Assembly: GCA_020355945.1 (NCBI GenBank)
Contig: CP070627.1
Coordinates: 7,183,290 to 7,215,168, forward strand
DNA from: Candidatus Aminicenantota bacterium
Lineage (GTDB): Bacteria > Acidobacteriota > Aminicenantia > UBA2199
Direction: 5' to 3'
DNA: 31,879 bases
The position numbers and the translations under genes were made by a program. Positions within the stretch are counted from its first letter, which is position 1; each line of letters starts with the position of its first letter. The notes beneath the pieces are model-generated. The model was given only the letters and a program-made list of their open reading frames with translations, ran no database searches and had not been told where the DNA came from. Of the stretch, positions 1-21,005 are shown one piece after another.

Positions 1-1051
1 AATAGAGACCCAGGGAAACCATTATATCCTGGGAGATGTCACATTGAACCATGGGGTTCAAGATATATGAGCCATCTCCCCAATTTCCGATATAACTGAA
101 CGCCGCAGATATAAAATCGGTAAAACTGAAACGCAGCATGGAGAAGAAATATTTTTGCCCCAGGGTAAAGCGTTCACCGGAAAGGAGAAGATCGAGATCA
201 TAGTTGGCACTGTCTTTTTCACCGCTGGAATCGTAATAAAATTCATTCAACCAATAGAGCCCTTGTTTTAAGGGAAAGGTATAATCAAATCCCAGCACAA
301 TTTTTTTATCCTTTCGCCCGGGTGAATCAAAATACCCGGCTTCAATCCACCAGCCGATAAAATTTTCACCCCTTAAGTCCAGGCCATATATGGAAGTATC
401 TACCGGTCCCGAACGGATAACGGTTAACGCCATATCGATACCTAAAGCATGGGTTTGGGCACGAAGGCCTGATTTAGAGGAGCTAAAGTCATTTTCCGGT
501 GAAAACACACCGGTGATACCGGAATAGGTTCCCAGTGGTATATAAACCTTAAGGGCATTGGCCCCGGGTTTTTCCTCTTTGGGTTCGAAAATATTCACCC
601 GGTTAAATATATCCAGGGGGGCCCAGAGATAAGAAACTCCCATGGCTACCCGCTGCTTGCCAATCGATATATCAAACCCTTTAAAATAAAGGTCCACATA
701 TGCCCGGTCCACGTCGATTTTCACCTTACTGGTTTCGGAACCGGTCCCGGCGGGGTCGCCGTAAGTTCCCAACGGACTGGTCATAATCCCATGAAAGGAA
801 AAAAAGTCCACTGCCACATTCACCGTCACTTTTTCCGAAGGGGAAGCTTGATATTTCAGCCGCAAACGGTTGTAATCCCCCAGGCTGAACTTATCGTTTA
901 AGTTTTTCCAGCTCATATCCAGGTGATTCAACAGGAAAAAACGGTTTTCAAAGTACCCGAAAATGTCCACATCTGCCATTAGACAACTGCCGGACAGGAT
1001 CGAAAAAAGAGCGACAGCAGTAAAAACATATTTTACTTTTTTCCCTTTCAT
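1..1051 (-). CDS. Outer-membrane beta-barrel-like protein, 3' end cut by window
   Basis: An uninterrupted minus-strand frame runs from an ATG at 1051 to the left edge (350 codons, no stop in the window), so the gene is partial. Residues 1-26 form a signal peptide: a basic start (MKGKKVKY), a hydrophobic core (VFTAVALFSIL) and a likely signal peptidase I site after CLMA. The Cys at 23 is not in a good lipobox. The mature part alternates polar and aromatic residues in short strands separated by Gly/Asp/Asn turns (for example VDLYFKGFDISIGKQRVAMG), as in porin-like outer-membrane proteins. No specific family is recognised; substrate and function are unknown. Its ATG overlaps the stop of the upstream TetR gene (ATGA), so the two are probably co-transcribed and translationally coupled. 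Confidence 0.72.
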   Translation of the reverse strand, partial: MKGKKVKYVFTAVALFSILSGSCLMADVDIFGYFENRFFLLNHLDMSWKNLNDKFSLGDYNRLRLKYQASPSEKVTVNVAVDFFSFHGIMTSPLGTYGDPAGTGSETSKVKIDVDRAYVDLYFKGFDISIGKQRVAMGVSYLWAPLDIFNRVNIFEPKEEKPGANALKVYIPLGTYSGITGVFSPENDFSSSKSGLRAQTHALGIDMALTVIRSGPVDTSIYGLDLRGENFIGWWIEAGYFDSPGRKDKKIVLGFDYTFPLKQGLYWLNEFYYDSSGEKDSANYDLDLLLSGERFTLGQKYFFSMLRFSFTDFISAAFSYIGNWGDGSYILNPMVQCDISQDIMVSLGLY

Positions 1052-1773
1052 TTGGGACCTCGTTGGGATTGATTCTCCTGGTCTTGTCCCTGGCTGTCAA
1101 GTTTAAAGATTTCAATATATTTGCGTTCCACCATCCTGAAGCTGCCCTCCGGGGCGCCCAAAATTCGCTCAACGCTTTTTTCAAAAACCTTTATTTTTTG
1201 TTCAATCAGATCGATATTTTCCGGTTTCTCTTCCGCTTGCAAAAGAAGTTCCACCACAATCTCATTCATACTAAACGCCATGATAAAGATGATCTCTGCT
1301 GTTTCCCTGGGGTACTGGGGGTGGAAATGCCCTTCTTCTATGCCCTGTTTGATGATTTCGGCAAAGGGAGGCGTTAATAATGCAATGCTTCGTTTAAATA
1401 TCTTGTGCCTGAGTATCAAATTTTCATCTTTGTACATGAACTTCATTAACATCTTCATCAAATCTTTGTTTTCAACTTTTCGATTCCTGATGGAAACAAA
1501 AAAGTGGTTCGCTTTTTCCAAAGCGTTCATATCCGTTTGTTCCATCATTTTTCCTACTTGTGATACGCTCTTTTCCGTAAATTGGTTTACCAATTGGTCC
1601 AGTAGGTCTTCTTTGGATTTGAAGTAGTGGTAAAAGGTACCTTTGGCCACACCGACCTTTTGGATGATATCGTTAACAGAGGTTTTTTCGTAGCCTTTCT
1701 CAAAGAAGAGCTGCCGGGCGGTATCGAGAAATTCGGTTAAGCGTTCGTCATATTCTTTGCTTATACGCACCAT
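1048..1773 (-). CDS. TetR/AcrR-family transcriptional regulator
   Basis: The 241-residue protein has the TetR N-terminal helix-turn-helix at about residues 9-56: FLDTARQLFFEKGYEKTSVNDI, then the recognition segment VGVAKGTFYHYFKSKEDLL, which is close to the family consensus. Residues 60-215 are a helical ligand-binding/dimerisation region, which is not conserved enough to name an effector. The tail (about 225-241) is polar and Gln-rich. Length is slightly above the usual 190-220. TetR proteins normally bind as dimers to palindromes over their own promoters and release on ligand binding; matching palindromes sit just upstream at 1802-1847. The only visible partner is the outer-membrane-type gene it overlaps by 4 nt. 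Nothing ties it directly to the NRPS operon, which starts 2 kb away on the other strand. Confidence 0.93.
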   Translation of the reverse strand: MVRISKEYDERLTEFLDTARQLFFEKGYEKTSVNDIIQKVGVAKGTFYHYFKSKEDLLDQLVNQFTEKSVSQVGKMMEQTDMNALEKANHFFVSIRNRKVENKDLMKMLMKFMYKDENLILRHKIFKRSIALLTPPFAEIIKQGIEEGHFHPQYPRETAEIIFIMAFSMNEIVVELLLQAEEKPENIDLIEQKIKVFEKSVERILGAPEGSFRMVERKYIEIFKLDSQGQDQENQSQRGPK

Positions 1774-1801
1774 TTGCAGTCTCCTTTAAAATTAACTGAC
1801 T

Positions 1802-1847
1802 GACGGTCTGTCTAGACTGACCGTCGGTCTAAACCGACCGTCGGTCA
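1802..1847. promoter_or_regulatory. Operator-like palindromes, probable TetR autoregulation site
   Basis: Positions 1802-1825 form a 24-bp palindrome centred on TCTAGA, with arms GACGGTC and GACCGTC and only one mismatched pair. The half-site GACCGTCGGTC occurs at 1819-1829 and again at 1836-1846, 17 bp apart, so the block is a cluster of related half-sites. It lies at the inferred transcription start of the TetR operon, where a bound repressor would block initiation. Assignment to this TetR is inferred from position. Confidence 0.7.
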
Positions 1848-1848
1848 T

Positions 1849-1877
1849 ATAATAGTATCATTTTTTTTATTTGTCAA
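1849..1877 (-). promoter_or_regulatory. Sigma70 promoter for tetR/outer-membrane operon
   Basis: Read on the minus strand, a perfect -35 TTGACA (1877-1872) is followed after 17 nt by -10 TATTAT (1854-1849). Transcription would start near 1842, inside the operator repeats, about 70 nt before the TetR start codon. Confidence 0.75.
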
Positions 1878-2216
1878 CTTTTTTTTAATTTTTTTTTGAA
1901 ATTCTAATTTTGAATATGTTTTAAAGAAGTATAACACAGAAAACAATTATTTTCAATTTCAAAACCAGGTCAACCCGTGTCCAAATAAAAAAATATTGTT
2001 AAAAGTAAAAATTATATTGAAATTTTTCCAAATTTATACTATTATACTCTGGTTGTCCAATAGCTAAATCAATCGAAACCCATCATAATTAGCTCGAGCA
2101 AAATTGACATTTATCATACCAGCAACCTAAAAAGACATCTATTGAGAAGCCAGTAAAAGACCACCTTTTGTTTCTACAAAAAACACACCAAAGAAAAAAG
2201 AAAAGAGAGGTAAAAC
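1878..2216. other. AT-rich intergenic region between divergent units
   Basis: This stretch lies between the leftward TetR operon and the first small peptide gene. It holds long A/T runs, a candidate rightward promoter (2017-2045) and the 5' leader of the peptide gene with a short hairpin (2155-2169). No ORF with a ribosome site is visible. Confidence 0.6.
2017..2045 (+). promoter_or_regulatory. Candidate promoter for first peptide gene
   Basis: TTGAAA (2017-2022) and TATTAT (2040-2045) are spaced by 17 nt. In such AT-rich DNA chance matches are likely. It gives a leader of about 165 nt, similar to the roughly 150-nt leader of the second peptide gene. Confidence 0.4.
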
Positions 2217-2402
2217 ATGAAAAAAAAAGCGTTAACAAGTAAGTTAGATTTGAACAAGGAAACAATTGCTCACTTAAATAGCCTGGAGATGTCTGCCAGC
2301 CGTGGTGGTGCTAAAGAGACGAGAATTGGCAGAAGTTGCTACACAGATAGATGCTGCCGTTCTAACCATTGCGAAGAAATGGTGCTGCTTCCCAACCAGT
2401 AA
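2217..2402 (+). CDS. RiPP precursor-like peptide 1 (double-glycine leader, Cys-rich core)
   Basis: This 61-residue peptide starts at an ATG 6 nt after a GAGAGG ribosome site. The leader begins MKKKALTSKLDLNKETIAHL; the L-NKETI-LN pattern recurs in natural-product precursor families, including class I lanthipeptide-type leaders. Residues 20-31 (LNSLEMSASRGG) fit the double-glycine consensus LSxxELxxIxGG: Leu -12, Glu -8, Met -7, Gly -2, Gly -1. Cleavage there, normally by a C39 peptidase/transporter, would leave a 30-residue core starting AKETRIG, with SCYTDRCC and a further Cys (HC), four Cys in all. The core has two Thr and two Ser, so thioether rings or disulfides are both possible. A paralogue follows at 2773. 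No modification enzyme or exporter of known type is in the window. Alternative: an unmodified small secreted Cys-rich peptide. Confidence 0.72.
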   Translation: MKKKALTSKLDLNKETIAHLNSLEMSASRGGAKETRIGRSCYTDRCCRSNHCEEMVLLPNQ

Positions 2403-2586
2403 GAAAACAGCGGCTGTCTTCCGGCACCTGCAAAAGTTGTTTTAAACTCCCAAATCCACTGTGGGGATACCTTTATAGCGGAATCAGTGCCCAATGTCCA
2501 ACGCACCAACGAATAAAACAGGGGAATTACTGTTTCCATTATAACTTTGCAGCAAAAATCAAAAAAAACGTTAAAAAATAATTAAT

Positions 2587-2615
2587 TTGATTTTTTTGTA
2601 ACTTTATGCTATAAT
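2587..2615 (+). promoter_or_regulatory. Extended -10 promoter for second peptide gene
   Basis: TTGATT (2587-2592), a 17-nt spacer, then TATAAT (2610-2615), preceded by TGC as in extended -10 promoters. The start would be near 2622, giving a leader of about 150 nt. The TATGCTAT core is shared with the NRPS promoter at 3503-3531. Confidence 0.7.
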
Positions 2616-2714
2616 AGTAAGGTTACTCGACGGGTGGTGTTCGAGTGGTGTTATCCCCGCGATAAGTTGGGGAAAGAGGCAATATGATTGAAGAGGCAGT
2701 CTCTAATCAAATCT

Positions 2715-2772
2715 GTTGAGAAACCAACAAAAGGTGAGCTTTTACTTCAAAAACAAAAAAAAGAGGTGAAAC
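2715..2772 (+). repeat. Duplicated 5' leader copy with hairpin (copy 2)
   Basis: The sequence just before the second peptide gene matches the one before the first (copy 1 about 2141-2216): TTGAGAA-CCA followed by AAAAG-5 nt-CTTTT, an A-rich run and the GAGG ribosome site. The hairpin arms are identical (2155-2159/2165-2169 and 2729-2733/2739-2743), while the loops differ (ACCAC versus GTGAG). The duplication that made the two peptide genes therefore included their leaders. Confidence 0.6.
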
Positions 2773-2949
2773 ATGAAAAAAAGAACCTTGAGAAAGTTGG
2801 TTTTGAACAAAGAAACAATTGTTCAATTAAATAACATTGAGATGAATGCCTTCCGGGCTGGTGCGAAGGAGACGAAAATTGGCGTAAGTTGTTATACCAA
2901 CAGGTGCTGCCAGAAAAAGGGGCAAATAAAGAACACAAAAATGTGCTGA
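2773..2949 (+). CDS. RiPP precursor-like peptide 2 (paralogue of peptide 1)
   Basis: This 58-residue peptide (ATG 2773, TGA 2947-2949) sits behind an AGAGGTG ribosome site. It begins MKKRTLRKLVLNKETIVQLN and is clearly paralogous to peptide 1. Residues 19-30 (LNNIEMNAFRAG) keep Leu -12, Glu -8 and Met -7, with AG in place of GG at the cut site. The predicted 28-residue core starts AKETKIG and contains SCYTNRCC plus a C-terminal Cys (KMC), four Cys in all. Only the KET-IG-SCYT-RCC part is conserved with peptide 1; the tails diverge, as in precursor families with a fixed ring-forming block. It has its own promoter and lies about 800 nt upstream of the NRPS start. Co-regulation with that operon is possible but unproven. 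Confidence 0.72.
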   Translation: MKKRTLRKLVLNKETIVQLNNIEMNAFRAGAKETKIGVSCYTNRCCQKKGQIKNTKMC

Positions 2950-3160
2950 TATTCCATATTCCATCAACGCCTTATTCTTCGGTCATTCCGTCATGCCCGA
3001 TACGTTCCGGATGGGAGATGTAATCAAAATTTGCCTCCAGGAAAAGCGGGGCAGGGGGATAACGATATCCCAAAAAAAATCGACAACAATTTCTTGCTAA
3101 CCTCCACCACCTCTGATTCGTTGTAGTATATGAAAAATCTGATAGGGATAGGAGGTTAAA

Positions 3161-3202
3161 ATGCGAGATGCAAACATCGTTATTGCCATGATTGTCAAAT
3201 GT
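3161..3202 (+). CDS. Possible 13-residue leader peptide ORF
   Basis: ATG at 3161 follows the Shine-Dalgarno site AGGAGG with 5-6 nt spacing; the product is MRDANIVIAMIVKC up to TAA (14 codons before the stop). GGAGGTTA (3151-3158), which includes the ribosome site, is exactly complementary to TAACCTCC (3098-3105), so the site could be hidden in an RNA stem. No clear promoter precedes it. It could be a regulatory leader ORF or a remnant of a decayed gene. Confidence 0.3.
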
Positions 3203-3502
3203 TAAAATGTGGAAAATGTGGAAATGTGGGGACAGGCAAAAAAAGGGATTTTGATGTGTAAGGCGGGGAAATTCGAAAGTTGAGAAATAATAACAAAAAT
3301 TGTTGCGTACCAAATTAACGTTAATATCCTACACAAAAAAGGACTAAAATGTTGATATAATTTACATTTCATTCAATAGTTGAAATCCCCAAAAAATTGT
3401 TAATAAAAAATTAAAAAATTTTTTTTCCTTTAAAAATGTTTTAAAAAGTAGATTTTTAAATGATTCTGCTCTTTTTGTGAATAAATGCAACAATTTTGAG
3501 TA

Positions 3503-3757: not shown

Positions 3758-6700
3758 ATGGAAAAATTAGATAAGAAAAATATCGAAGATATCCTTTCGC
3801 TAACGCCGATGCAGGAAGGAATGCTCTTTCATTATTTGCAAGATCCTGGGAGTGATATCTATTTTGAACAATTAAGCCTGGATATTTCCGGTGAAATCGA
3901 CGCTGACCTTTTTGGAAAAGCCTGGAATTTTGTTATTGAAACCAATGAGATGTTAAGAACGGTGTTCAGGTGGGAGAAGGTAGAAAATCCGGTTCAGATT
4001 ATTTTAAAAAAGCATCAACTTCAACCGAAATTTTTTGATCTCTCAGGAAAGGAACCCGGAGAAAAGAAAAAATGTTTGGAAAAGATAAAGGTCGAAGACA
4101 AGAAAGAAAAATTTGATTTACGGGAAGTTCCTTTCCGGGTGACCTTATGTAAAGTTGAAGAGAACAAATATGAGATGATGATCAGTAATCATCATATTCT
4201 TTACGATGGTTGGAGTACCGGGATTATTTTAAAGGAATTTTTTGAGGTATATCATGCCTTTTTGAATGGAGATCAAAGGACAAAGCCGTCGCTTAAACCA
4301 TCATTTAGGGAATTTGTGCAATGGCTCCAGGACCAGGATAAAGGTCAACAAAAACGATTCTGGGAAGGATATTTAAGTGGACTTTCAGCCCCAAGCACAT
4401 TCCCCTTAACCACCAACAAAAGGATAAAGGGAAAAGAGGCAAAGAGAATTGAAAATTACCCGGTGGTTTTGGCAAAAGATATGAAATACGAATTAGAGGC
4501 CTTTATCAAGCGTCAGCGGTTAACATTGGCCTCCTTTTTCTATAGTGCCTGGGGGATATTGCTGCAAAGATATTGTAACACCAATGATGTAAATTTTGGC
4601 ACCATCGTGTCAGGAAGGTCAGCCAGGATAAAAGGAATCGAAGATATGGTGGGACTGTTTATCAATACTATCCCGCTGCGAGTAAGCACAGAAGCGGGAG
4701 AAAAAATAAAAGACATGGTGCAACGAATTAACTGCATCCTACCAATAAGAGAAAAATATGAAAGTACCGCCTTAGTTGATGTTAAAGAATACAGTGAGTT
4801 GGAAAATAGCCAGGAACTTTTCGATTCCATTATCGTCCTGGAAAATTACCCATTAGATCTTGAGTTGATGCAAAAAAATGGTCAATGGTCATTGGTGGTG
4901 GAATCTTATTCCATCGTAGAAACCACCACATATCCTTTAGCCATCAGCATTACCATCGGCGAAGCTATAGAAATTCGCCTTATTTATCACCCAGCACTGG
5001 TGGAGAAAACAGCGATTTCCAGGCTATCCTGTCATTTCACCAATATTTTAATGGGTATTTTAAAGGATTTTGAGAAAGATATAAATGGTATTGAACTATT
5101 AGTAGAAGAAGAAAAGCAGCAGATTTTACATGATTTTAATGACACCCGGGTGAGATATCCAAAAGATAAAACCCTCCAGGAATTATTTGAGGAGCAGGTG
5201 GAGCAAACCCCGGACCATGTTGCCCTGGTAGGGACAACGAGGTGTCCTTCGGACATGAAAGTAAATGTGCTGGGCGAGAATATTTCAATCACTTACAAAG
5301 AATTGAATGAAAAATCTCATCAACTGGCCCATTTATTAAGGAAAAAGGGTGTTGCAGCAGAAACCATTGTAGGTATAATGACGGAGCGTTCCCTTAAGAT
5401 GATCATAGGCATACTGGCTGTATTGAAAGCAGGAGGTGCTTTTTTACCCATTGACACAGATTACCCGGCAGAACGAAAATCATTTATGCTCCGAGACTCA
5501 AACACCCATATACTGCTGATTTGCTCTCCCTTAATAAAAGAAAATAATTTTAAATTTAATGGAGAGATGATCTTATTGGATGAGCTAAGCGTACCAGATG
5601 GAGTGGAGATGAATAAAGACATCGCTTCAAAGCATGTCAATACAGCGGATGATCTGGCTTATATTATGTATACTTCAGGTTCCACAGGCAGGCCTAAAGG
5701 GGTGATAGTGGAGCATCGCAATGTTGTCCGTTTGGTGGTTAACACCAATTATATCCGGTTAACAGGAGAAACTCGCATCCTGCAAACCGGTGCTCCTGTA
5801 TTTGATGCCACCACTTTTGAAATATGGGGCGCGCTGCTTAACGGCGGTCAATTGGTATTAGTGGAGAAAGAAGTCATCCTGGATGCTCACCAGTTGGGCC
5901 AGGCCCTCCATCAAAATAAGATCAACACCCTATGGCTTACTTCCCCGCTGTTTAATCAATTGGTCGGGGAAAATTGCGAAATATTTTCAAACCTGGACTA
6001 TTTACTGGTGGGGGGCGATGTTTTATCTCCCCAATTCATCAATTTGGTAAGAAGTAAGAGTGAAAAACTAAAAATAATTAATGGTTATGGTCCAACAGAA
6101 AATACGACGTTTTCCACCACTTTTTTAATTGATAGAGATTTTGAAGAGGCCATTCCCATTGGCAGTCCTATTACCAATTCCACGGCATTTGTCTTAGGTC
6201 CACATGGAGAACTTCAACCCGTTGGGGTATTCGGAGAGTTGTGGGTAGGTGGAGATGGTGTATCTCGTGGCTATTTAAATCGTCCCGAATTGACCAGGGA
6301 AAAATTTGTTAACCTCCCGTGTTTAGGGGGAAAGCGGTTGTATCGAACCGGTGATATTACCCGATGGCTGCCGGATGGAAATATTCAATTTTCAAGACGT
6401 ATTGATTCCCAGGTTAAGATCAGGGGCTTCCGCGTAGAACCCGGAGAAATCGAGAAATACCTGTTAGAAAATCAAGAAGTTAAAGAAGCACTGGTAATAC
6501 CCAGGGAGGAAGAAACCGCTGAGAAATACCTTTGTGCCTATATCATTCCTGATTTTTCCGGCATTTCTCCAACCACCGATTCGTCAACTGCTGGTTTGAT
6601 TTCCCGATTACAGGAATTTTTATCTGGTGAATTGCCCGGTTATATGGTGCCTGCGCAATTTGTGATGCTGGAAAAGATACCACTGAATCCCAATGGTAAG

Positions 6701-9700
6701 GTAGATATAAAGGCCCTTCCGAAACCTGAAATAAAGAGAAAGCAGGCAGTTGTGGCTCCCCGGGACAGGGTGGAGAAACAACTGAAAGAATTATGGGCTT
6801 TGGTGTTGGGAATGGAAAAGGAGCGAATCAGCATTGATGACGATTTCTTTCAACTGGGTGGACATTCATTAAAAGCAACCACACTGGCATCCCGGATACA
6901 CAAAGTAATTCATGTAAAATTGCCGGTAATGGAGATATTTAATCGCCCCACCATCAGAAGTCTTTCTCAATACATAAAGGAAGCGGTTGAAGAACATTAC
7001 AGCTCGATAGAAGTCATAGAGGAGAAAGAATACTATTTATTATCCCCGGCACAGAAACGCTTATATTTTTTGCATCGGTTGGGCGAAACCACTTCAGCCT
7101 ATAACATATCTTGTGCCTGGTTGTTGGAAGGACTTTTAGATAAAGATAAGTGGGAGCACGTCTTTAGAAAATTGATCCAAAGGCATGAAAGTTTGAGAAC
7201 ATCGTTTTTGATCATAGATGAAGAACCGGTGCAGAGAATACACAAAGAAGTGGAATTTGAGGTTGAATGTTATGACGCAGAGCGCAAAGCGCAAAGCGCA
7301 GAGCACAAAGATGAACGCCATGCGCCATGCGCCATGCGCTGTGCAAGTACTATAAAGAATTTCATACGTCCGTTTGATCTGTCAAAAGCACCGTTGATCC
7401 GGGTTGGATTGTTAGAAATAGGAAAAAATAAACACCTCTTCATGGTGGATATGCACCACATCGTGTCTGACGGCACGTCGGTAGCGGTGCTGGTCAAGGA
7501 ATTTATGTCTCTATACGATGGTGAAGCGTTACCACCACTAAGGCTCCGGTATAAAGATTGCTCCCAATGGCAGAGCAGTAAAAAGCAAAAAGCTTTGATC
7601 AAGTGTCAAGGAGAGTACTGGCTTGAGGAATTTGCCGGGGATATCCCGGTGTTGAACTTGCCTTATGATTTTTCACGGCCCCTCATCCAGAGCTTTGCCG
7701 GAAATTCACTGGAATTTAAAATCGTAGAAGAGGAGGCAAAAAAATTAAAACACCTGGCCTTAGCCGAAGGTTCTACACTTTACATGGTCTTGTTGGCTTT
7801 ATTTTATATTTTCTTTGGTAAGGTGAGCGGCCAGGAAGATATTGTGGTGGGCTCACTTGCCGCGGGCAGAAAACAGCCAGGTTTAGAACAAATAATTGGG
7901 ATATTTATAAATACCCTGGCGCTTCGGAATTATCCTACAGCAGAAAAATCCATTACACTTTTTTTAAGAGATGTCAAAGAAAACACCTTGAAGGCCCAGG
8001 AAAACCAGGATTATCCGTTTGAAGATCTGGTGGAGTTGGTTGAGGTAAATCGGGATACCAGTCGCAATCCTTTATTCGATGTCATGTTGGTATTCCAGAA
8101 TATGGAACAGCATAAATTGCATGTACCTGGTTTAACATTAACACAATACCCCTACGAAAGTAAAAAATCGAAATTCGATATGACATTAACCGTTGTTGAA
8201 CATGAAGGCAGCCTCTCGTTTACCTTCACTTATAATCGGGATTTATTTAAGAAAACTACCATCCAACGGTTTATCGGATTTTTTAAGCGAATTGCGGCTG
8301 CAAGCCTGGAAAATCCGCTCCGGGAAATAGCCGAAATAGAGATAATCCCTGATAATGAGAAAAAACAAGTATTATATGATTTTAACGCCACTTCCAGGGA
8401 ATATCCCACAGGGAAGAGCATACATCTGTTGTTTGAAGAACAGGTACAGGAGACAGCGGATCATATTGCGGTTGTGGGAAACCCCGAAATGCCCGAGACA
8501 CAGGAAAGACAAAAAAGAGGAACCGCACCGATACAAATTACCTATAAAGAATTAAATGCCAGAGCTAATCAATTGGGACGGTTATTGAGAGCCAAAGGTG
8601 TGATACCGGATTCAATCACCGGCATCATGACCGGACCCTGGTTGGAGATGATGGTTGGCATCATGGCAATATTAAAAGCCGGAGGTAGTTATTTACCCAT
8701 TGATCCCTTGCAGCCGGCGGGAAGAATTACTTACATGTTAAACGACAGCCGGGCATCTGTCCTGTTGACATCCCTTGGGTTAGCCGAATCCCTTCCCCCT
8801 GAAAACCACAGTGGGCAGCAAAGGATTTACCTTGATGAAGCCTGTATTTACACTGGAGAGAGCACCAACCTGGAAACCGCCAGCAGGTGTCAGGATGTGC
8901 TGTACACCATTTATACCTCCGGTACCACCGGCAAATCCAAAGGGACCCTTGTTGAGAATAAAAACCTGGTCAACTATATCCATTGGTTCAAGCAAAAGGT
9001 ACATTTAACCGAAAATGACCGTACGGTGTTGACTTCATCCTTTGGTTTTGATCTGGGATATACCAATATCTACTCTTCGATTTTAAGCGGGTGTCAATTG
9101 CACCTAATTCCCAGGGATGTTTTCCTATCCCCGGAAGGTCTGCTTGGTTACATGATTCGCCACCGGATCACCTATATAAAAGTTACCCCTTCATTATTTT
9201 CCACTATAGTTGGCAGCTCTATTTTTTCACGGGAAGCGTGTCAAAATCTCCGGTTGGTGTTATTGGGTGGGGAAGAGATCAGGTTGAAGGATGTGGAAAA
9301 AGCGCATGGCATCGGGGTGCATATGGAAATCATGAACCATTATGGCCCTACTGAAGCCACCATTGGCTGTGTGGCCCGGTTTATTGATTTTAATCGGTTT
9401 GATCAATATAAAAAACATCCCACCATTGGCTCTCCTATTGATAACATGAAGGCAGTTGTACTGGACAACGGTTTAATGCTGGTGCCAGTGGGCGTGGCTG
9501 GAGAGTTGTGTGTGTCCGGTGCAGGTGTTGCCAGGGGATATTTAAATCAGCCGGAACTGACTGCGCAGAAATTTTGCCTCCGGCGGCCAGGGGGGCGCTT
9601 TTTGAAAAAACTGCCCCCCTGGACCCCCGGCAAAAACTTTTTATTAGAGGGGACAAAGGGGCTTGCCCCCTTGGTGTATCGTACCGGTGATAAAGCCCGG

Positions 9701-11677
9701 TGGTTAACCAGTGGAATGATCGAGTTCCTGGGACGAATTGACCACCAGGTGAAAATCCGGGGATATCGCATCGAAACCGGTGAAGTCCAAAACCAGTTGC
9801 AAAAACATAAAGCCATAAAGGAAGTGGTGGTTATTCCTTTTGCGCATTCCTCCGGTGATAAATATTTGTGCGCTTATATCGTATGGAATCGAGATGAAGC
9901 GGTTTATCCCGCAGCCCCCCAACAGGAATTAAAGGGATACCTGGCAGATAAGCTGCCGGAGTATATGATTCCCACATATTTTGTCACGGTGGACCGGCTA
10001 CCCTTAACCCCCAACGGAAAGTTAAACCGGAAATTATTACCGAAACCGGAAATAAAAATAGAAACAAGGTATGCTCCTCCAAGAGATGTCCTGGAAAGGC
10101 AATTAATAGAAATATGGGAAAAGGAATTGAATATTACTCCTGTAGGTATAAATGATAATTTCTTTGATGTTGGAGGGCATTCACTGAAGGCCATGGGTGT
10201 GATCAATCAAATTCACAAAACCTTCGGTGTAGAGATCACAATCCAGGATTTTTTCCGATCTCCCTTCATCGTTGATGTGGCCCGTTTCATTCGCACCAGT
10301 AAGCGCACAGGGTTTAGGGAGATTGAGAAACAGCCGGAACAGGCGTTCTATGAACTCTCATATTCCCAAAAGCGGTTATGGTTCATTTACAAACAGGAGC
10401 CTGGTAATACGGTCTACAACATGCCTGTAAAGATAACCTTATATGAGGTGGTTGACGAAGTTGTCATCCGAAAGGTCCTGGAACAATTGATGAGCAGGCA
10501 TGAAAGCCTCAGAACCTCCTTTAAGGAGATAAAAAAAGAACCAGTACAGGTGATTGAACCACTCACTCAATTGAAATTGAACTTTGAAGTGCTGGACTGG
10601 TGCCAATTGGAGGCAAAGGAGCAGGAAAACAGACGAAGCCAGTTATTAATGGATGAGTCAAAGTACATATTTAAGCTGGAAAAAGCACCCCTGTTCAGGG
10701 CCAAACTGGTGAAATGGCATCCGGGAGAATACGATTTTATATTCAATATACATCACATCATATCAGATGGCTGGTCACAGGAGATATTATTCAATGAATT
10801 TGAACGGATTTATGAAGCCCAGAAAAAAGGCATTACTTGTGATCTTCAGCCGTTGAAAATACAGTATAAAGATTTTGCTGCCTGGCAAAATCAACTATTG
10901 GCGGACGAAAAGAATATGGGCAAGGCAAAAAAGTTCTGGAAAAGTTATTTAAATGGAACGCTTCCGCTGTTGAATTTACCCTATGATACCCCTCCCAAAC
11001 CATCTGGCAGCAGGGCCAGCGCAGCCTACCGCCGTATGATTCCCGGGGAACTGGTAAAAGGACTGGAAGAACTGGCAATAGAAAATCATGCCAGTCTCTT
11101 CATTGTACTGTTGGCGGGTTTCAACATATTGTTGTCGAAAATTACCGGACAGGAAAACATTATTATGGCCATACCTGCTGCCGGCCGTCAGCATGAAGCA
11201 TTGAAAACCATCATAGGCATGTTTGTGAATACCTTGATCCTGCGAACCATGGTGAACGCGGATGAAACCTTCCTGGACTTTTTCAAAGCGTTTCAAGATA
11301 ATGCTTTACAGGTACTGGATTATCAAACCTATCCCATGGAATTGATTTGTAGTGCGCTAAAGATCAAATACCCTAAAATTTCCGTTTTCTTTAATATGAT
11401 CAATATCGGGAATTCCCGCCGGCAAAACCGGGAAGACCTTGAAGACTCCCATATAGAAAATGTTCAAGATACGAAATTCCATATTCACTGCTATTTAAGG
11501 GAATACAAAAATGGCATAGAAATCTCATGCCATTATTTTAAGGATTTGTTTATGCCGGAAACCATTGAAAAAATCACACATCTGTACATTAAAGTTCTTA
11601 AAAATATCGCCAATGAACCGGGAATGAAGATTGGAGAATACAGTTTTACCAGGAAGAAAAGAATGTCTATCATGTAG
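3758..11677 (+). CDS. NRPS1: C-A(Val)-T-C-A(Asp)-T-C
   Basis: This 2639-residue synthetase starts the operon. C1 (1-440) has HHILYDG at 145; an N-terminal C domain with no carrier before it implies either an acyl starter or an upstream partner elsewhere. A1 has YTSGSTG at 638 and FDATTFEIWG at 682; its by-eye code DAFWLGGTFK is a known valine code. T1 Ser is 1037 (GGHS). C2 has HHIVSDG at 1233. A2 has YTSGTTG at 1719 and code DLTKLGHIGK, closest to aspartate (Asn possible). T2 Ser is 2142. C3 has HHIISDG at 2332 and closes the protein, to act with the next A-T unit. There is no E, MT or TE domain. Two in-frame repeat-derived insertions are visible (7277-7344 in C2, 9575-9676 in A2). The next gene starts 6 nt after the stop. 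Domain order is certain; substrates are inferred by hand alignment to GrsA. Confidence 0.97.
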   Translation: MEKLDKKNIEDILSLTPMQEGMLFHYLQDPGSDIYFEQLSLDISGEIDADLFGKAWNFVIETNEMLRTVFRWEKVENPVQIILKKHQLQPKFFDLSGKEPGEKKKCLEKIKVEDKKEKFDLREVPFRVTLCKVEENKYEMMISNHHILYDGWSTGIILKEFFEVYHAFLNGDQRTKPSLKPSFREFVQWLQDQDKGQQKRFWEGYLSGLSAPSTFPLTTNKRIKGKEAKRIENYPVVLAKDMKYELEAFIKRQRLTLASFFYSAWGILLQRYCNTNDVNFGTIVSGRSARIKGIEDMVGLFINTIPLRVSTEAGEKIKDMVQRINCILPIREKYESTALVDVKEYSELENSQELFDSIIVLENYPLDLELMQKNGQWSLVVESYSIVETTTYPLAISITIGEAIEIRLIYHPALVEKTAISRLSCHFTNILMGILKDFEKDINGIELLVEEEKQQILHDFNDTRVRYPKDKTLQELFEEQVEQTPDHVALVGTTRCPSDMKVNVLGENISITYKELNEKSHQLAHLLRKKGVAAETIVGIMTERSLKMIIGILAVLKAGGAFLPIDTDYPAERKSFMLRDSNTHILLICSPLIKENNFKFNGEMILLDELSVPDGVEMNKDIASKHVNTADDLAYIMYTSGSTGRPKGVIVEHRNVVRLVVNTNYIRLTGETRILQTGAPVFDATTFEIWGALLNGGQLVLVEKEVILDAHQLGQALHQNKINTLWLTSPLFNQLVGENCEIFSNLDYLLVGGDVLSPQFINLVRSKSEKLKIINGYGPTENTTFSTTFLIDRDFEEAIPIGSPITNSTAFVLGPHGELQPVGVFGELWVGGDGVSRGYLNRPELTREKFVNLPCLGGKRLYRTGDITRWLPDGNIQFSRRIDSQVKIRGFRVEPGEIEKYLLENQEVKEALVIPREEETAEKYLCAYIIPDFSGISPTTDSSTAGLISRLQEFLSGELPGYMVPAQFVMLEKIPLNPNGKVDIKALPKPEIKRKQAVVAPRDRVEKQLKELWALVLGMEKERISIDDDFFQLGGHSLKATTLASRIHKVIHVKLPVMEIFNRPTIRSLSQYIKEAVEEHYSSIEVIEEKEYYLLSPAQKRLYFLHRLGETTSAYNISCAWLLEGLLDKDKWEHVFRKLIQRHESLRTSFLIIDEEPVQRIHKEVEFEVECYDAERKAQSAEHKDERHAPCAMRCASTIKNFIRPFDLSKAPLIRVGLLEIGKNKHLFMVDMHHIVSDGTSVAVLVKEFMSLYDGEALPPLRLRYKDCSQWQSSKKQKALIKCQGEYWLEEFAGDIPVLNLPYDFSRPLIQSFAGNSLEFKIVEEEAKKLKHLALAEGSTLYMVLLALFYIFFGKVSGQEDIVVGSLAAGRKQPGLEQIIGIFINTLALRNYPTAEKSITLFLRDVKENTLKAQENQDYPFEDLVELVEVNRDTSRNPLFDVMLVFQNMEQHKLHVPGLTLTQYPYESKKSKFDMTLTVVEHEGSLSFTFTYNRDLFKKTTIQRFIGFFKRIAAASLENPLREIAEIEIIPDNEKKQVLYDFNATSREYPTGKSIHLLFEEQVQETADHIAVVGNPEMPETQERQKRGTAPIQITYKELNARANQLGRLLRAKGVIPDSITGIMTGPWLEMMVGIMAILKAGGSYLPIDPLQPAGRITYMLNDSRASVLLTSLGLAESLPPENHSGQQRIYLDEACIYTGESTNLETASRCQDVLYTIYTSGTTGKSKGTLVENKNLVNYIHWFKQKVHLTENDRTVLTSSFGFDLGYTNIYSSILSGCQLHLIPRDVFLSPEGLLGYMIRHRITYIKVTPSLFSTIVGSSIFSREACQNLRLVLLGGEEIRLKDVEKAHGIGVHMEIMNHYGPTEATIGCVARFIDFNRFDQYKKHPTIGSPIDNMKAVVLDNGLMLVPVGVAGELCVSGAGVARGYLNQPELTAQKFCLRRPGGRFLKKLPPWTPGKNFLLEGTKGLAPLVYRTGDKARWLTSGMIEFLGRIDHQVKIRGYRIETGEVQNQLQKHKAIKEVVVIPFAHSSGDKYLCAYIVWNRDEAVYPAAPQQELKGYLADKLPEYMIPTYFVTVDRLPLTPNGKLNRKLLPKPEIKIETRYAPPRDVLERQLIEIWEKELNITPVGINDNFFDVGGHSLKAMGVINQIHKTFGVEITIQDFFRSPFIVDVARFIRTSKRTGFREIEKQPEQAFYELSYSQKRLWFIYKQEPGNTVYNMPVKITLYEVVDEVVIRKVLEQLMSRHESLRTSFKEIKKEPVQVIEPLTQLKLNFEVLDWCQLEAKEQENRRSQLLMDESKYIFKLEKAPLFRAKLVKWHPGEYDFIFNIHHIISDGWSQEILFNEFERIYEAQKKGITCDLQPLKIQYKDFAAWQNQLLADEKNMGKAKKFWKSYLNGTLPLLNLPYDTPPKPSGSRASAAYRRMIPGELVKGLEELAIENHASLFIVLLAGFNILLSKITGQENIIMAIPAAGRQHEALKTIIGMFVNTLILRTMVNADETFLDFFKAFQDNALQVLDYQTYPMELICSALKIKYPKISVFFNMINIGNSRRQNREDLEDSHIENVQDTKFHIHCYLREYKNGIEISCHYFKDLFMPETIEKITHLYIKVLKNIANEPGMKIGEYSFTRKKRMSIM
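7277..7344 (+). repeat. Heptanucleotide repeat array inside NRPS1 C2 domain
   Basis: Four consecutive 7-nt units GCARAGC (7277-7304) are followed, after 12 nt, by GCCATGC three times and GCTGTGC (7317-7344). The array is translated as a charged, Cys-containing loop just before the conserved FIRPFDLS motif, where the other C domains have a short linker. Confidence 0.8.
9575..9676 (+). repeat. GC-rich palindromic element inserted in frame in NRPS1 A2
   Basis: CCAGGGGGGC (9587-9596) and GCCCCCCTGG (9613-9622) form a perfect 10-bp inverted repeat with a T-run/A-run inner stem. A second hairpin, AAGGGG/CCCCTT, lies at 9656-9672. Together they encode about 34 residues (1940-1973) where A1 has about 12, just before the YRTGD motif. 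Composition differs sharply from the AT-rich flanks, as for a mobile palindromic repeat. Confidence 0.75.
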
Positions 11678-11683: not shown

Positions 11684-13069
11684 ATGGAAATAAGAGAAGA
11701 CGTATATAGAGCCCACCAACGATTGTCGGGATGCAGCGCAAAATTTCTCGATTTTGTGAAGAATAATCCGGAGAGTTTAAGACGTTCAAATTTTTCGGAG
11801 TTGGAAATCAACTATGGAAAAATTAAATTGCAGTCGTGGCCTACTTTTATCGATAAAAGAACAAAAGAAGAGATTAAAGAAGCCAGTGTAGGGGTATGTC
11901 AATTGATTAAAAGTTTACCCCAACGAATGTTTTCCAACAATCCCAGCCAGGTAAGCCGGTATTATGAAATTTCAGATCATATGGCCGCGACACTGCTGGA
12001 TGGAATAAGTGAAGAGCATATTGACAACTTGATCGCCAGGGGCGATTTTATTTTTTCATCCTCCGGGTTGAAATGCCTGGAATATAACATCTCAGCCAAT
12101 GTAGGCGGATGGGAAATAGCGATGTGGGAGCCCTTATATTTAAAGATTCCTATTATATCCCGATTTCTTCAGCAGTATGGATATAATGGAAAGATAAGAA
12201 ACGATAATTTATTATCGATTTTATTCAAGCATTTTATTCATACAGCCCTGGATAAATTTCCCGGTGGTTGCGATACGATTAATATTGCTGCTGCATTTTT
12301 GGCAAAAGGAATTGATAATCCTACCCAGTTGTACATCAATCAGTTATATAAAAATATATTGCGGCAAATAAGTATAAAATTAAAAGGAAGAATCGCTTTC
12401 TGTAGGTACCAAGACCTGGATATCGTTGATGATGTCGTGTATTACAAAGGAGAGCAGGTACATGTACTGGTAGAAATGTATGAAGGTGTTGTGCCTCCTG
12501 AGTTTGTAAAAGCCGTTAAGTCAAATAACGTCATCATATACAACGGGCACATAACAGGCTTGATGTCTAACAAACTCAATTTGGTGCTGCTAGCGGAAAA
12601 TGCCAATTCTGACATCTTTACTCCTGAAGAAAGGGAACTCATTACCAGGTATATCCCCTGGACCCGTAAAATGGTTCCCTGTAAAACCACATTCGACGGT
12701 AGAACAATAGACCTGGAGGATTTTGTTTGTTCCAATAGAGAGCAATTGGTTATAAAACCCTCCATTGGTTCCGGGGGAGAAAGTGTGTACGTTGGACACA
12801 ATCTCTACCAATCCCACTGGATAAGAATTGCTCAAAACGCATTCCGAACCAGAGGATGGGTAGTGCAAGAATATGTCGAATCCCTTCCCTATTTATACCA
12901 GGTGGGTGAGAGTAGAAGCGCTCCTCATAACGCAGTATGGGGATTTTTTGTTTTTGGCTCCCGGTATGCCGGAGCGTGGGTTCGGGTTTTGCCAAGGGAA
13001 GGTAATCCGGGAGTGGTAAACTCCAGACAGGGAGCTGAGGAAAGTGTTATCCTGGAAATCGATGAATGA
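11684..13069 (+). CDS. ATP-grasp-like protein 1 in NRPS operon
   Basis: This 461-residue protein is homologous to the next gene along its whole length. Residues 1-110 are an N-terminal domain (QSWPTFID at about 52). GLKCLEYNISANVGGW lies near 128-143 and has the acidic/Asn pattern seen in ATP-grasp and glutathionylspermidine-synthase-like folds. GHITGLMSNKLNLVLLAE near 289-306 resembles the segment of circularly permuted ATP-grasp enzymes that ends in a Lys. LVIKPSIGSGGESVYVG (about 355-371) is the ATP-binding strand and Gly-rich loop, followed by GWVVQEYVE. These enzymes usually make an amide bond between a carboxylate and an amine through an acyl phosphate. No signal peptide or membrane segment is present. 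The gene starts 6 nt after NRPS1, so it is part of the operon. Substrate unknown; no domain database was consulted. Confidence 0.7.
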   Translation: MEIREDVYRAHQRLSGCSAKFLDFVKNNPESLRRSNFSELEINYGKIKLQSWPTFIDKRTKEEIKEASVGVCQLIKSLPQRMFSNNPSQVSRYYEISDHMAATLLDGISEEHIDNLIARGDFIFSSSGLKCLEYNISANVGGWEIAMWEPLYLKIPIISRFLQQYGYNGKIRNDNLLSILFKHFIHTALDKFPGGCDTINIAAAFLAKGIDNPTQLYINQLYKNILRQISIKLKGRIAFCRYQDLDIVDDVVYYKGEQVHVLVEMYEGVVPPEFVKAVKSNNVIIYNGHITGLMSNKLNLVLLAENANSDIFTPEERELITRYIPWTRKMVPCKTTFDGRTIDLEDFVCSNREQLVIKPSIGSGGESVYVGHNLYQSHWIRIAQNAFRTRGWVVQEYVESLPYLYQVGESRSAPHNAVWGFFVFGSRYAGAWVRVLPREGNPGVVNSRQGAEESVILEIDE

Positions 13070-13111
13070 ACAATGACATATGCTGAATAAGATGAAGTAG
13101 AGAAGGTTAAA

Positions 13112-14512
13112 ATGAAGGTAACAAAAGAAATGAAAGAGGCACATAAAAGACTTTCCCGCCTAAATGTGGATTTTATCGACTTTGTTGAAAGAAACCCCGA
13201 AGCCTTAAAGGCATCGAATTTTAAACTGCTGGATTTGAATGACAAATTATTTAAACTGCAGCCCTGGCCAACCTTTATTAACCATGAAAGCAAGAAAGAA
13301 ATCCAGCAGGCAAGTGTGGCGTTGTTTGATTTAATCAAAAGTATCCCTCGCCGAATATTTGACAATGATCCTTATAAAATAAGCAAGTATTTGGAAATTC
13401 CCCATATCCGGGCTAAGCATCAATTGGAAGGGGTTAATGACCGTCACCTGGAAGATCTTTTAGCAAGAGGTGATTTTATTGTTTCGCCGTCGTCAGGGTT
13501 AAAATGTATTGAATATAATGTAACCGCCTGCCTCGGGGGGTGGAATTTACCTTCCTGGGAGTTATTGTACCTGAATAACCCGGTAATATCCGGATTTTTA
13601 AAAGAGTACCGGGTAAAGATAAACAATGAGAACTTACTGTCTTTGATGTTGGAGCACCTCATACATTCATCCCCGGACCCGGATACCCCCCCTCATCCTG
13701 GCAGCCAGATGAATATTGCCGTGGTGGTTCCGGGTTTTATCGAAGGCACTCCGAATACCACAAAGTTCTATTTAAATCATTTGTACCAGGAAATTTTAAA
13801 AGATAAATGTAAAGATAATACTTTAAAAGGCAGTGTATTTATGTGCGATTACGCCCATATAACGCCGGTTGATGGTTATGCCTTCTATAAAGACAAAAGA
13901 ATTCATCTTATCATTGAGATGTATAATGGCAATGTACCGCCGCAGATAATGGAACTTTTTAAATCAGGCCGCCTGCGTTTGGTCAATGGTCCCATTACCG
14001 ATTTATTGTCCAATAAATTATTGTTGGCGCTGCTCTCTGATGATGAAACCTCGGGTGCATTTACAGTGGAAGAAAGAGAGGTCATTGATGCATATATTCC
14101 CTGGACCCGCAAAATAGCCGCCGGTGTTACAGGTTATGGAGGGGAAAGAGTTCAGTTGGAAGAATTTATTCTCTCTAACAGGGAAAACCTGGTGATCAAG
14201 CCCTCAGATGCCATGGGTGGTGACAATGTATATATCGGCCGGAAAACCCCGGGAAAGAAATGGGAGCAAGTGCTTAAAACCGGCCTCCAACATAAGAACT
14301 GGCTGGTGCAGGAGTATGTGGAACCCTCACAGGGTTTATATCAAACCGGTGAAGAGGATTGTGTGCTGCATGATACGGTCTGGGGATTTTTTGTTTTCGG
14401 CTCCCGGTATGGAGGTGGATGGGGGCGGGTTCTACCGGCAGCAGATAACCAGGGTGCCATCAATTGCCATCAAGGGGCAACCGTTAGTGTGGTTTTTGAA
14501 GTTGATGAATGA
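13112..14512 (+). CDS. ATP-grasp-like protein 2, tandem paralogue
   Basis: This 466-residue protein aligns end to end with its neighbour (for example AHKRLS, WPTFIN, GLKCIEYNVTACLGGW, SNKLLLALLSDD, YIPWTRKI, LVIKPSDAMGGDNVYIG, WLVQEYVEP, WGFFVFGSRYGGG). The C-terminal block GRVLPAADNQGAINCHQGA may carry the Mg-binding Asn. Roughly half the residues match by eye in the first 90 positions, so this is an old duplication with both copies open and motif-intact. It lies 42 nt after copy 1 and 47 nt before NRPS2, between two synthetases that would otherwise be adjacent. A role in tailoring, priming or ligating the NRPS product is inferred from position only. Confidence 0.7.
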   Translation: MKVTKEMKEAHKRLSRLNVDFIDFVERNPEALKASNFKLLDLNDKLFKLQPWPTFINHESKKEIQQASVALFDLIKSIPRRIFDNDPYKISKYLEIPHIRAKHQLEGVNDRHLEDLLARGDFIVSPSSGLKCIEYNVTACLGGWNLPSWELLYLNNPVISGFLKEYRVKINNENLLSLMLEHLIHSSPDPDTPPHPGSQMNIAVVVPGFIEGTPNTTKFYLNHLYQEILKDKCKDNTLKGSVFMCDYAHITPVDGYAFYKDKRIHLIIEMYNGNVPPQIMELFKSGRLRLVNGPITDLLSNKLLLALLSDDETSGAFTVEEREVIDAYIPWTRKIAAGVTGYGGERVQLEEFILSNRENLVIKPSDAMGGDNVYIGRKTPGKKWEQVLKTGLQHKNWLVQEYVEPSQGLYQTGEEDCVLHDTVWGFFVFGSRYGGGWGRVLPAADNQGAINCHQGATVSVVFEVDE

Positions 14513-14559: not shown

Positions 14560-17500
14560 GTGATAATAAAAAAATTCCAGCAGCAAGTTGAACGGTTTTT
14601 TGATAAACCGGCAGTAAAAGCAGGGGAGCATTTTTTTACCTACGGTCAGCTCAATCGCTGTGCCAACCGAGTTGTACATGATCTTCTCAAAGGCGATAAC
14701 ACAGCGGCGGAGCCCGGTAAGGTTGACCCTTCAATCGCAGCCCTGCTGTTTGAACATGGTGCCGATGTGATTGTGGCAATAATCGCAGTATTAAAGACCA
14801 ATAAAACCTATGTACCCATGGATGCAAACTATCCCCAAAATAGATTGTTGTACATGTTGGAGCATTCCGGAGCAGCCACCATCCTCACCAACCGTAAAAA
14901 CCTTGTCTTAGCCAGGAACCTGGTGAGAGAATCCGGGAGGGAAATAAGAATTGTAATAGTTGATATTGATGAAAACAGGGAAACGGACACTTTCGATGAT
15001 AACCCGGAACCGGAAACCGTGGGTAACCAACCCGCCTATATCCTTTATACCTCCGGTTCCAGTGGGCGTCCCAAAGGAGTGCTTCAAACCCATCAAAATA
15101 TTTTATATTTTATTCATCACTGGACACAACGTTTTTCCATCAATGCTTCCGACCGGTTGACCCTGTTGTCGTCATTAAGTCACGACGGTGCCATCCCTGA
15201 TATATACGGTTCACTGCTCAACGGCGCGGTGTTGTATCCATATGATATAAAGGAAAAGCCCAACCTCAGGGACCTGTCCCATTGGTTGATCAAAGAGAAA
15301 ATAACCGTATGGCATTCGGTTCCCACCCTCTACCGGTATTTTACCCGGACATTAATCGGTGAGGAGCGGTTTCCCCATCTTCGATTAATGGTGCTGGGGG
15401 GTGAAGAAGTCAGGGAGCCCGATGTCACACTATTTAAAAATTTTTTCCCCCACACGGATTTTGCCAATATTTACGGGCAAACCGAGTCCACTGTCAACTC
15501 CATATGGCTGCCTTCTCAACAAGAAATGTTTAAAAGAGTCATCATCGGGGAAGCCATAGGAGACACTGAAATTTTCCTGGTGGATGACAACGGTGGTATC
15601 GTGGAGGAAATGGGGGTGGGGGAAATTGTGATTGCCAGTGACCATGTTGCCCTGGGATATTGGAAAGATAAAGAAAATAGTAAAAAAGTATTTACCACCC
15701 ACAGTGAACTGGGGCGATTGTATTGGACCGGTGACCTGGGCCGATTAAACGCAGATGGGAGTATCACCACCAGTGGACGTAAAGATTCTCAAGTAAAGAT
15801 AAGGGGATTCCGGGTAGAAACCGGGGAAATCGAATCCCTGTTATTAAAACATCCTGCTGTCAAAGAAGTGGTGGTCATGGCAAGAGAGGATGAAAATAAC
15901 GATAACTACCTGTGTGCCTATATCGTCTCTGAGGGACCTACAGCTCCCGCTCAACTGAAAAAATTTTTGTACACGGAATTACCCGATTACATGATCCCGG
16001 CATATTTTGTAGATTTGGAAAAAATACCATTAACAGGAAGTGGTAAGATAGACAGGGCCGCCTTACCGGCACCGGGGGGCCATACTTGTTCAGCAGCGGA
16101 ACATGAATATGTCCCCACCACCAATGAAATCGAAAAAAAATTGATCATCATGTGGCAGGAACTCCTGGGAATGGAGAGAATTGGGCTCAATTCCAATTTT
16201 TTTGAACTGGGCGGACACTCCTTGATCATCATAACACTCATATCAAACATACATCAAGTTTTTAGTCTGGAATTGCAAATAAAGGATGTTTTTGATAACC
16301 CTACTGTCCGGGAACTGGCCCAATTAATTGCCTCTAAGGAAAAAAATATATGGGACTTCATTGAACCTGCCGAAGAAAAAGAGTATTATGAATTGTCCTC
16401 GGCCCAGCAGCGATTGTACATTTCCCAGCAAAGAGCCCCCAAAGACACAAGTTATAATATACCTGGCATATTCATATTCGAGGGGAAATTGGTTAGAAAA
16501 GAATTTGAAAAAGCACTTCAAGGGCTTATTGATCGACACGAAGTATTACGTACATCCTTCATCCTGGTCAATGGTCAATTGGTACAAAAGATAGATAATC
16601 ATATTGATTTTAAATTAAAGTACGGAAAAATCAGCAGCGAAGATAATGAAGCGCTAAGGAAGCGAATAGAAGAATTTGTAAAGCCTTTTGATTTAAGTGA
16701 GGCCCCTCTCCTTAGAGTTGAACTCATTGAATGTGATAAAGAAAAACACCTGGTTTCTTTTGAATTACATCACATCATTGCCGATGGCTCTTCCCTGGAG
16801 ATATTGATCAATGATTTTGCCCGACTCTATGGTGGAAAGGACCTTATCTCCTTACCTATCCAATATAAAGATTATGTGGTCTGGAAGAATAAAAGTTTAA
16901 ATAAAGAAAAACTTAAGACAAAGGAAGAATACTGGTTGAAAAAGCTGGAAGGTTTTGTGTTTACCCAACTTCCCATCGATCATTTTGATTCCTATAAACA
17001 GGAAGAAGGTAAGCGGGCACAGCAGGAAATCGGGGCATCCCATTATAATAAGATCGAGATATTTTGCAGTAAATACAACGTCACCAAATTTGTATTTATG
17101 ATTACGGTTTTTCAAATTGTACTGGCCAGGGAAATCGATCAGGCAGATATTACCATAGGAATTCCCGTATCAATACGAGAACATTCCGATTTAAGGGATT
17201 TAATCGGGATATTTTTAAATGTGCTGCTTATTCGTACCCTAATAGATAATCAAGATACATTTTTAAATTGCCTGGAGAAAAGTAAGCAAACAGTTAGCGA
17301 AGCATTAAATAACCAGGACTATCCCTATGAAATATTGAACAATAAAATCAGGGAGAATAGTCACTTAAAAAAAAGTGAGCTGTTTAGTATATTTTTTAAC
17401 TATTTCACCCGGGAAAAAGATAAAAAAGTATCCGTATTTGATGAAAATTTTAAAATCCGTCCCCTGAAAATTCAAGAATTTTCTTCCAGGTATGATATAA

Positions 17501-17742: not shown

Positions 17743-17754
17743 AGGAGGGCAGCA

Positions 17755-20982: not shown

Positions 20983-21005
20983 TAAAGGATGGAGGATAGG
21001 GGCGT

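What the first reader, a model, noticed from the sequence alone, without database searches (positions are those of the whole stretch)
2217..2949. Two paralogous double-glycine peptides with a conserved SCYTxRCC core
Seen directly: both have LNKETI leaders, a match to the LSxxELxxIxGG processing consensus, and cores sharing AKET-IG-SCYT-RCC with four Cys each. Known: such leaders are cut by C39 peptidase/transporters and occur in lanthipeptide-like families. I do not recognise this core. The second gene is under 60 codons and easily missed.
Basis: partly seen in the sequence, partly recalled or inferred. Interest (0 to 1): 0.75.

Follow-up and report, generated by a model that had tools for sequence, protein, structure and literature searches.

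The report
Orphan lantibiotic-type precursors beside NRPS genes
Two small sister genes encode precursors of what is probably a four-ring lanthionine peptide with an unusual, strictly kept core motif, sitting next to an unrelated peptide-making enzyme cluster and without their own modifying enzymes in view.

Summary
ORFs 2217-2402 (61 aa) and 2773-2949 (58 aa) are paralogues with a duplicated upstream region and purifying selection (dN/dS about 0.24). Both leaders pass the cut-off of NCBIfam NF038153 (class I lanthipeptide) and fit the published LxLxKx5L motif. One metagenomic homologue, P0003, shares the core AKETKIGxSCYTDRCC. In all three the core block is more conserved than the leader, and each core has four Ser/Thr and four Cys with two (S/T)xxC spacings, as a four-ring lanthipeptide would. 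In 9 of 13 other genomes with this leader, LanC lies within 3 kb of one.

The window shows no LanB, LanC, LanM, radical SAM or C39 domain in the 21 ORFs scanned. Its neighbours are TetR, five NRPS genes and two glutathione-synthetase-fold ligases. Modifying enzymes must act from elsewhere; the genome is not held. Best reading: class I lanthipeptide-type precursors with a new core, modified in trans. A ribosomal/NRPS hybrid is not excluded but only adjacency speaks for it. New member of a known kind.

The parts
2217..2402 (+). precursor peptide 1, 61 aa; leader 1-31 (ends GG), core 32-61 with Cys41, 46, 47, 52 and Thr35, Ser40, Thr43, Ser49
   Evidence: NF038153 39 bits vs cut-off 22; S/T and Cys bookkeeping
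2773..2949 (+). precursor peptide 2, 58 aa; leader 1-30 (ends AG); core with Cys40, 45, 46, 58 and Thr34, Ser39, Thr42, Thr55
   Evidence: NF038153 32.4 bits vs 22
2310..2357 (+). conserved core block AKETRIGRSCYTDRCC of peptide 1
   Evidence: 13-14 of 16 identical in each pair of the three homologues
2863..2910 (+). conserved core block AKETKIGVSCYTNRCC of peptide 2
2122..2216 (+). 5' region of gene 1 shared with gene 2 (duplicated together with the gene)
   Evidence: local alignment, score 55 vs at most 42 in 300 shuffles
2696..2772 (+). 5' region of gene 2, counterpart of 2122-2216
2017..2045 (+). promoter-like site upstream of gene 1 (TTGAAA-17-TATTAT, 10 of 12); consensus match only
   Evidence: 13 sites found in 1700-4000 vs 7.1 expected
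2587..2615 (+). promoter-like site upstream of gene 2 (TTGATT-17-TATAAT with TG, 10 of 12); consensus match only
1048..1773 (-). TetR-family regulator, divergent; neighbour, probably not part of the system
   Evidence: PF00440 1.6e-19
3758..11677 (+). NRPS with three condensation, two adenylation and two carrier domains; neighbour
11684..13069 (+). ATP-grasp ligase 1, same family as ligase 2; neighbour
   Evidence: 46% identical to ligase 2; Pfam ATP-grasp matches only below cut-off
13112..14512 (+). ATP-grasp ligase 2, glutathione synthetase/glutathionylspermidine synthase fold; neighbour
   Evidence: AlphaFold model pLDDT 90.4; Foldseek hits
14560..31687 (+). four further NRPS genes (14560-17742, 17755-20982, 21006-25016, 25013-31687); neighbours

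Best explanation
The two genes encode class I lanthipeptide-type (LanA) precursors. Proposed route: the LNKETI leader recruits a LanB dehydratase and a LanC cyclase encoded elsewhere on the 9.13-Mb contig; the four core Ser/Thr are dehydrated and joined to the four Cys, giving two small rings (T43-C46 and the tail S/T-x-x-C) and probably two larger ones that use Thr35/Ser40 with Cys41/Cys47; a C39-type transporter then cuts after GG/AG and exports two related products. Shown: the genes, the leader family, core conservation, the 4:4 Ser/Thr to Cys count, and linkage of this leader to LanC, LanB and C39 in other genomes. Inferred: modification, ring pattern, cleavage, export and any antimicrobial or signalling role. 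The downstream NRPS operon is most likely an independent neighbour.
For: Leader over the curated NF038153 cut-off in 3 of 3 homologues (39, 32.4 and 40.4 bits vs 22); the same family matches 0 of 14 control genomes. The leader fits LxLxKx5L, reported for Bacteroidetes class I LanAs, many of which end in GG and often have a C39 protease in the cluster (passages of PMC7268733). Core block more conserved than leader in all three pairs: 13-14 of 16 vs 17-19 of 30-31. Four Ser/Thr and four Cys in each of three cores, with TxxC in the block and [ST]xxC in the tail in 3 of 3 (per-peptide shuffle chance 0.06-0.10 for the tail, 0.06-0.11 for two or more [ST]xxC in the whole core). dN/dS about 0.24. In other genomes with the leader, LanC lies within 3 kb of at least one leader in 9 of 13; LanB is in the same region in 3 of the 5 searched and C39 in 2 of those 5.
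Against: No LanB, LanC or C39 domain among the 21 ORFs scanned in the window. Four of 13 comparison genomes lack a LanC near the leader; three of them (G002, G311 with 19 leader matches, and G327) have no LanC match at all. Only three sequences share the core, two of them from this window; the tails of P0001 and P0003 look homologous, so the [ST]xxC spacing is not three independent observations, and each is only weakly unlikely by chance. The second peptide has AG, not GG. dN/dS rests on one pair of short genes.
Confidence: 0.7

Rival explanations
1. Double-glycine peptides exported without lanthionine formation: the four Cys form two disulfides or bind a metal, or another enzyme (such as a radical SAM protein) modifies them.
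For: No dehydratase found in the window. Double-glycine leaders are common in other RiPP classes (PMC7268733 passage). Weak similarity to TIGR04149, targets of radical SAM enzymes (16.3 bits). G311 carries 19 leader matches with no LanC match.
Against: TIGR04149 is below its cut-off of 25 bits, while NF038153 is above its own. The equal Ser/Thr and Cys numbers and the S/T-x-x-C spacing have no obvious reason to exist in a disulfide peptide.
Confidence: 0.18
2. Ribosomal/NRPS hybrid: the peptides are substrates or partners of the adjacent NRPS and ATP-grasp ligases, which extend or acylate the ribosomal core.
For: Same strand and directly upstream of a 28-kb NRPS operon; ligase 2 has the glutathione-synthetase fold, whose known members form peptide or amide bonds (the activity is recalled). 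NRPS clusters in which a LanB-like enzyme acts as peptide ligase are known (abstract of PMC11212132).
Against: 808 bp without an obvious gene, holding promoter-like sites of their own, lie between peptide 2 and the NRPS. In 13 other genomes with the leader, no condensation domain lies near it: 6 have such domains, all on other contigs or more than 1 Mb away (one search read). No LanB-like domain in the operon.
Confidence: 0.07
3. Graspetides: the two ATP-grasp enzymes make lactam/lactone links in the two peptides.
For: Two peptides and two ATP-grasp genes in one window; graspetide precursors of the microviridin kind typically have a GG motif (PMC8939145 passages).
Against: The modelled ligase matches (homo)glutathione synthetase best (E 1.4e-16) and also glutathionylspermidine synthase, while the graspetide ligase PsnB ranks 49th at E 0.037. 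The ligases begin 8.7 kb away inside the NRPS operon. The core lacks the repeated Thr and Glu/Asp layout of graspetides (recalled).
Confidence: 0.03

Closest known systems
NCBIfam NF038153 lant_leader_L1a, class I lanthipeptide precursors (LxLxKx5L leaders of Bacteroidetes)
   Same: Leader sequence, length, GG/GA end, Cys-containing core with Ser/Thr
   Different: Core AKETxIGxSCYTxRCC not seen in the 28 leader-bearing ORFs read nor in P0124-P0127; no LanB/LanC/C39 found in the window; host appears to be an Aminicenantes-like Acidobacteriota (inferred from names of ATP-grasp homologues)
   Same: Same type of leader, tandem copies, four Cys each, three of four copies with four Ser/Thr by a crude core cut, LanC 0.3 kb away
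   Different: Core sequence unrelated (VTCANASCAASCNQNSCN type)
Pinensins (Bacteroidetes class I lanthipeptides)
   Same: Class I route; the only lanthipeptides isolated from Bacteroidetes as stated in PMC7268733 in 2020 (passage)
   Different: Not compared sequence to sequence here; split LanB reported there (passage)
Prochlorosin-type systems (precursors far from a shared synthetase; recalled)
   Same: Precursor genes without modifying enzymes beside them
   Different: Those belong to the Nif11 leader family and class II (passage); their cores vary more than their leaders (recalled), whereas here the core block is the more conserved part

Membership tests
Class I lanthipeptide precursor, lant_leader_L1a type | Leader matches NF038153 above the curated cut-off | tested here: met
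   39, 32.4 and 40.4 bits vs 22
Class I lanthipeptide precursor, lant_leader_L1a type | LxLxKx5L leader motif ending in GG or GA | tested here: met
   LDLNKETIAHL...GGA and LVLNKETIVQL...AGA, against the motif in PMC7268733
Class I lanthipeptide precursor, lant_leader_L1a type | Core with Ser/Thr and Cys placed for thioether rings | tested here: met
   4 Ser/Thr and 4 Cys in 3 of 3; two S/T-x-x-C each
Class I lanthipeptide precursor, lant_leader_L1a type | LanB and LanC encoded nearby | tested here: not met
   None among 21 ORFs scanned in the window; only 2.2 kb of upstream sequence is visible, so a cluster to the left is not excluded
Class I lanthipeptide precursor, lant_leader_L1a type | LanB and LanC somewhere in the genome | not testable with these tools
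   Genome not held
Class I lanthipeptide precursor, lant_leader_L1a type | Thioether rings in the product | not testable with these tools
   needs mass spectrometry
Radical-SAM target peptides TIGR04149 | Match above the curated cut-off | tested here: not met
   16.3 and 13.8 bits vs 25 for peptide 1 and P0003; no match listed for peptide 2
Graspetides | Graspetide-type ATP-grasp ligase | tested here: not met
   Ligase 2: fold nearest to glutathione synthetase; PsnB rank 49, E 0.037. Ligase 1 was not modelled (46% identical)

The most novel reading that the evidence does not exclude
The peptides are the ribosomal half of a hybrid pathway in which the adjacent NRPS and the paired glutathione-synthetase-fold ligases build on, or conjugate to, the lanthionine core.
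Probability: 0.06. Interest if true: 0.8.

Novelty: new member of a known kind. Interest (0 to 1): 0.42.

Why it matters
If the reading is right, an uncultured NRPS-bearing lineage also makes lanthipeptides with a strictly kept SCYTxRCC block, which suggests a fixed target or structure. Precursors without neighbouring enzymes are easily missed by cluster-based mining, so the core motif is a useful search handle. The absence of LanB/LanC nearby makes in-trans modification testable once the source genome is read.

Tried and rejected
Rejected: radical SAM family TIGR04149 (below cut-off); graspetide reading. The NRPS conjugate is kept only as a low-probability case.

Led nowhere: the genome-contig scan matched 69 stretches, of which 5 were confirmed as relatives; 4 of these match in the leader only (residues within 1-32) and one, L005, over residues 2-56 at 39% without the SCYTxRCC block. 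Viral-contig scans: 3 stretches for the ATP-grasp and 172 for the peptides, no relative confirmed. Plasmid tblastn with P0003: no match. PDB sequences with P0003: no match at E up to 1. The 101 genomes around G005 have no ATP-grasp homologue, which says little since no positive control was among them. Second peptide search: besides the three, four proteins with the leader but another core, two of them at E above 0.01. RNA folds of four intergenic stretches: z-scores -0.16 to -1.94, nothing firm. Rfam and tRNA scans of the window: none. PF28317 is listed as a precomputed domain of P0001-P0003 and P0124-P0127, but the Pfam copy here shows no match for the two peptides and one search found no paper naming it, so nothing was built on it.

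Limits: ORFs of 100 aa or less other than the two peptides were not scanned against Pfam. LanB and C39 were searched in 5 of the 13 comparison genomes only.

Literature: 'lanthipeptide' or 'lantibiotic' with 'Aminicenantes' gives no paper in the held library. Papers seen: passages of PMC7268733, PMC8939145 and PMC10352776; abstract and outline of PMC11212132; all others only as search listings with the start of the abstract.

Full report
What is there. The window (31,879 bases; GC 39-43% over the first 28 kb) carries, from left: a frame of 350 residues on the minus strand that runs off the window edge and looks like a secreted or outer-membrane protein by eye (no Pfam match), a TetR regulator (minus), the two peptide genes, and then on the plus strand an NRPS gene, two ATP-grasp ligases and four more NRPS genes. 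A protein search reports that both peptides lie on a contig of 9,131,798 bases. Named homologues of the second ATP-grasp protein include Candidatus Aminicenantes and Acidobacteriota entries, with single entries from Omnitrophota and Kapabacteria among the 120 listed of 305, so the host is probably an Aminicenantes-like Acidobacteriota. This is an inference; no taxonomy of the window was available, and its genome is not held.

The observation. The peptides are 65% identical. Over 46 aligned codons dN is 0.18 and dS 0.73; in the 16-codon core block seven of the eleven differences are at third positions. The similarity continues upstream of both start codons but not downstream of the stops. Both facts point to a gene duplicated with its leader region and then kept by selection on the protein.

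The family. Both leaders exceed the curated cut-off of NF038153, class I lanthipeptide, as does the homologue P0003. The motif LxLxKx5L, described for Bacteroidetes class I precursors, many of which end in Gly-Gly and often have a C39 protease in the cluster (PMC7268733, passages), fits both. Two protein searches found one further peptide with the same core, P0003 (53 aa, from a 985-bp ENA contig), and four with the leader but another core. A scan of the collection of 84,980 species genomes with the two patterns KL[DV]LNKET and SCYT[DN]RCC matched 69 stretches; 5 were confirmed as relatives by tblastn and none of these carries the core. A core with another residue at the variable place would have been missed. 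The core is rare in held data.

Core anatomy. In each of the three pairs the 16-residue block is more conserved (13-14 of 16) than the leader (17-19 of 30-31). Each core has exactly four Ser/Thr and four Cys. T43-C46 has three-residue spacing in all three, and each tail, although of different length and sequence, has one Ser/Thr three residues before one Cys: S49-C52, T55-C58 and T49-C52. Chance of the tail pattern by shuffling is 0.06 to 0.10 per peptide, and of two or more such spacings in the whole core 0.06 to 0.11; the tails of peptide 1 and P0003 look homologous, so these are not three independent tests. The simplest chemistry for such a layout is four thioether rings. The ring assignment is a proposal.

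Context elsewhere. Thirteen genomes with NF038153 leaders were examined: five reached through (matches) and eight further ones from 296 genomes of the phylum of G001 (9 of 296 positive, G001 among them; 0 of 14 control genomes). The record title of G001 names it a Bacteroidetes bacterium. LanC lies within 3 kb of at least one leader in 9 of 13; the four exceptions are G002, G311 and G327 (no LanC match) and G005 (LanC and LanB adjacent to each other but on another contig). LanB and C39 were searched in the first five only: LanB is in the same region in G001, G003 and G004, C39 in G001 and G003. Condensation domains occur in 6 of 13 but not near a leader (one search read). So the leader belongs to the LanB/LanC world, and the NRPS neighbourhood of this window is not typical of it.

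Enzymes in the window. Twenty-one ORFs were scanned against Pfam: the two peptides, TetR, the two ligases, the left-edge frame, five NRPS genes and the ten other complete ORFs of more than 100 aa listed. None shows a LanB, LanC, LanM, radical SAM or C39 domain. Only 2.2 kb upstream of the peptides is visible, so a modifying cluster to the left is possible.

The NRPS neighbours. The second ATP-grasp protein was modelled from 27 sequences (pLDDT 90.4). Its best fold matches are homoglutathione synthetase, a glutathione-synthetase-like protein, human glutathione synthetase and a chain titled Ligase Cp1B; a putative glutathionylspermidine synthase gives the highest TM-score of the listed rows (0.65) and is also the only sequence-level PDB match at E up to 1. 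They look like amide-bond-forming enzymes of the NRPS pathway rather than graspetide ligases; that is inference from fold and place.

Conclusion. The finding is real and the class assignment is well supported, but the enzymes that would make it a working lanthipeptide system are not in view. I file it as a new member of a known kind: an orphan pair with a new core.

Noticed in passing
11684-14512: Two tandem ATP-grasp ligases (46% identical) sit between NRPS genes; ligase 2 has the glutathione/glutathionylspermidine synthetase fold. Their role in NRPS pathways may deserve its own study.
   Followed up: partly
7276-7339: Heptanucleotide tandem repeats (CGCAAAG x5, CGCCATG x3.4) lie in frame inside the first NRPS ORF, adding a stretch rich in Ala, His and Arg ahead of a FIRPFDL motif.
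   Followed up: partly
31540-31687: The last NRPS ORF ends in about 47 residues with no Pfam domain, right after a condensation domain, which suggests a frameshift, insertion or rearrangement near the right edge.
   Followed up: no
1798-1846: Nearly three 17-bp repeats GACTGACCGTCGGTCTA just upstream of the TetR gene, possibly its operator array (two copies).
   Followed up: no
L005:8794-10581: A Phycisphaerae contig carries five tandem precursors with NKETV leaders, GG ends and different cores in this stretch, six in the whole locus; its genome G005 has nine leader matches, with LanB and LanC adjacent on another contig.
   Followed up: partly
   Followed up: no
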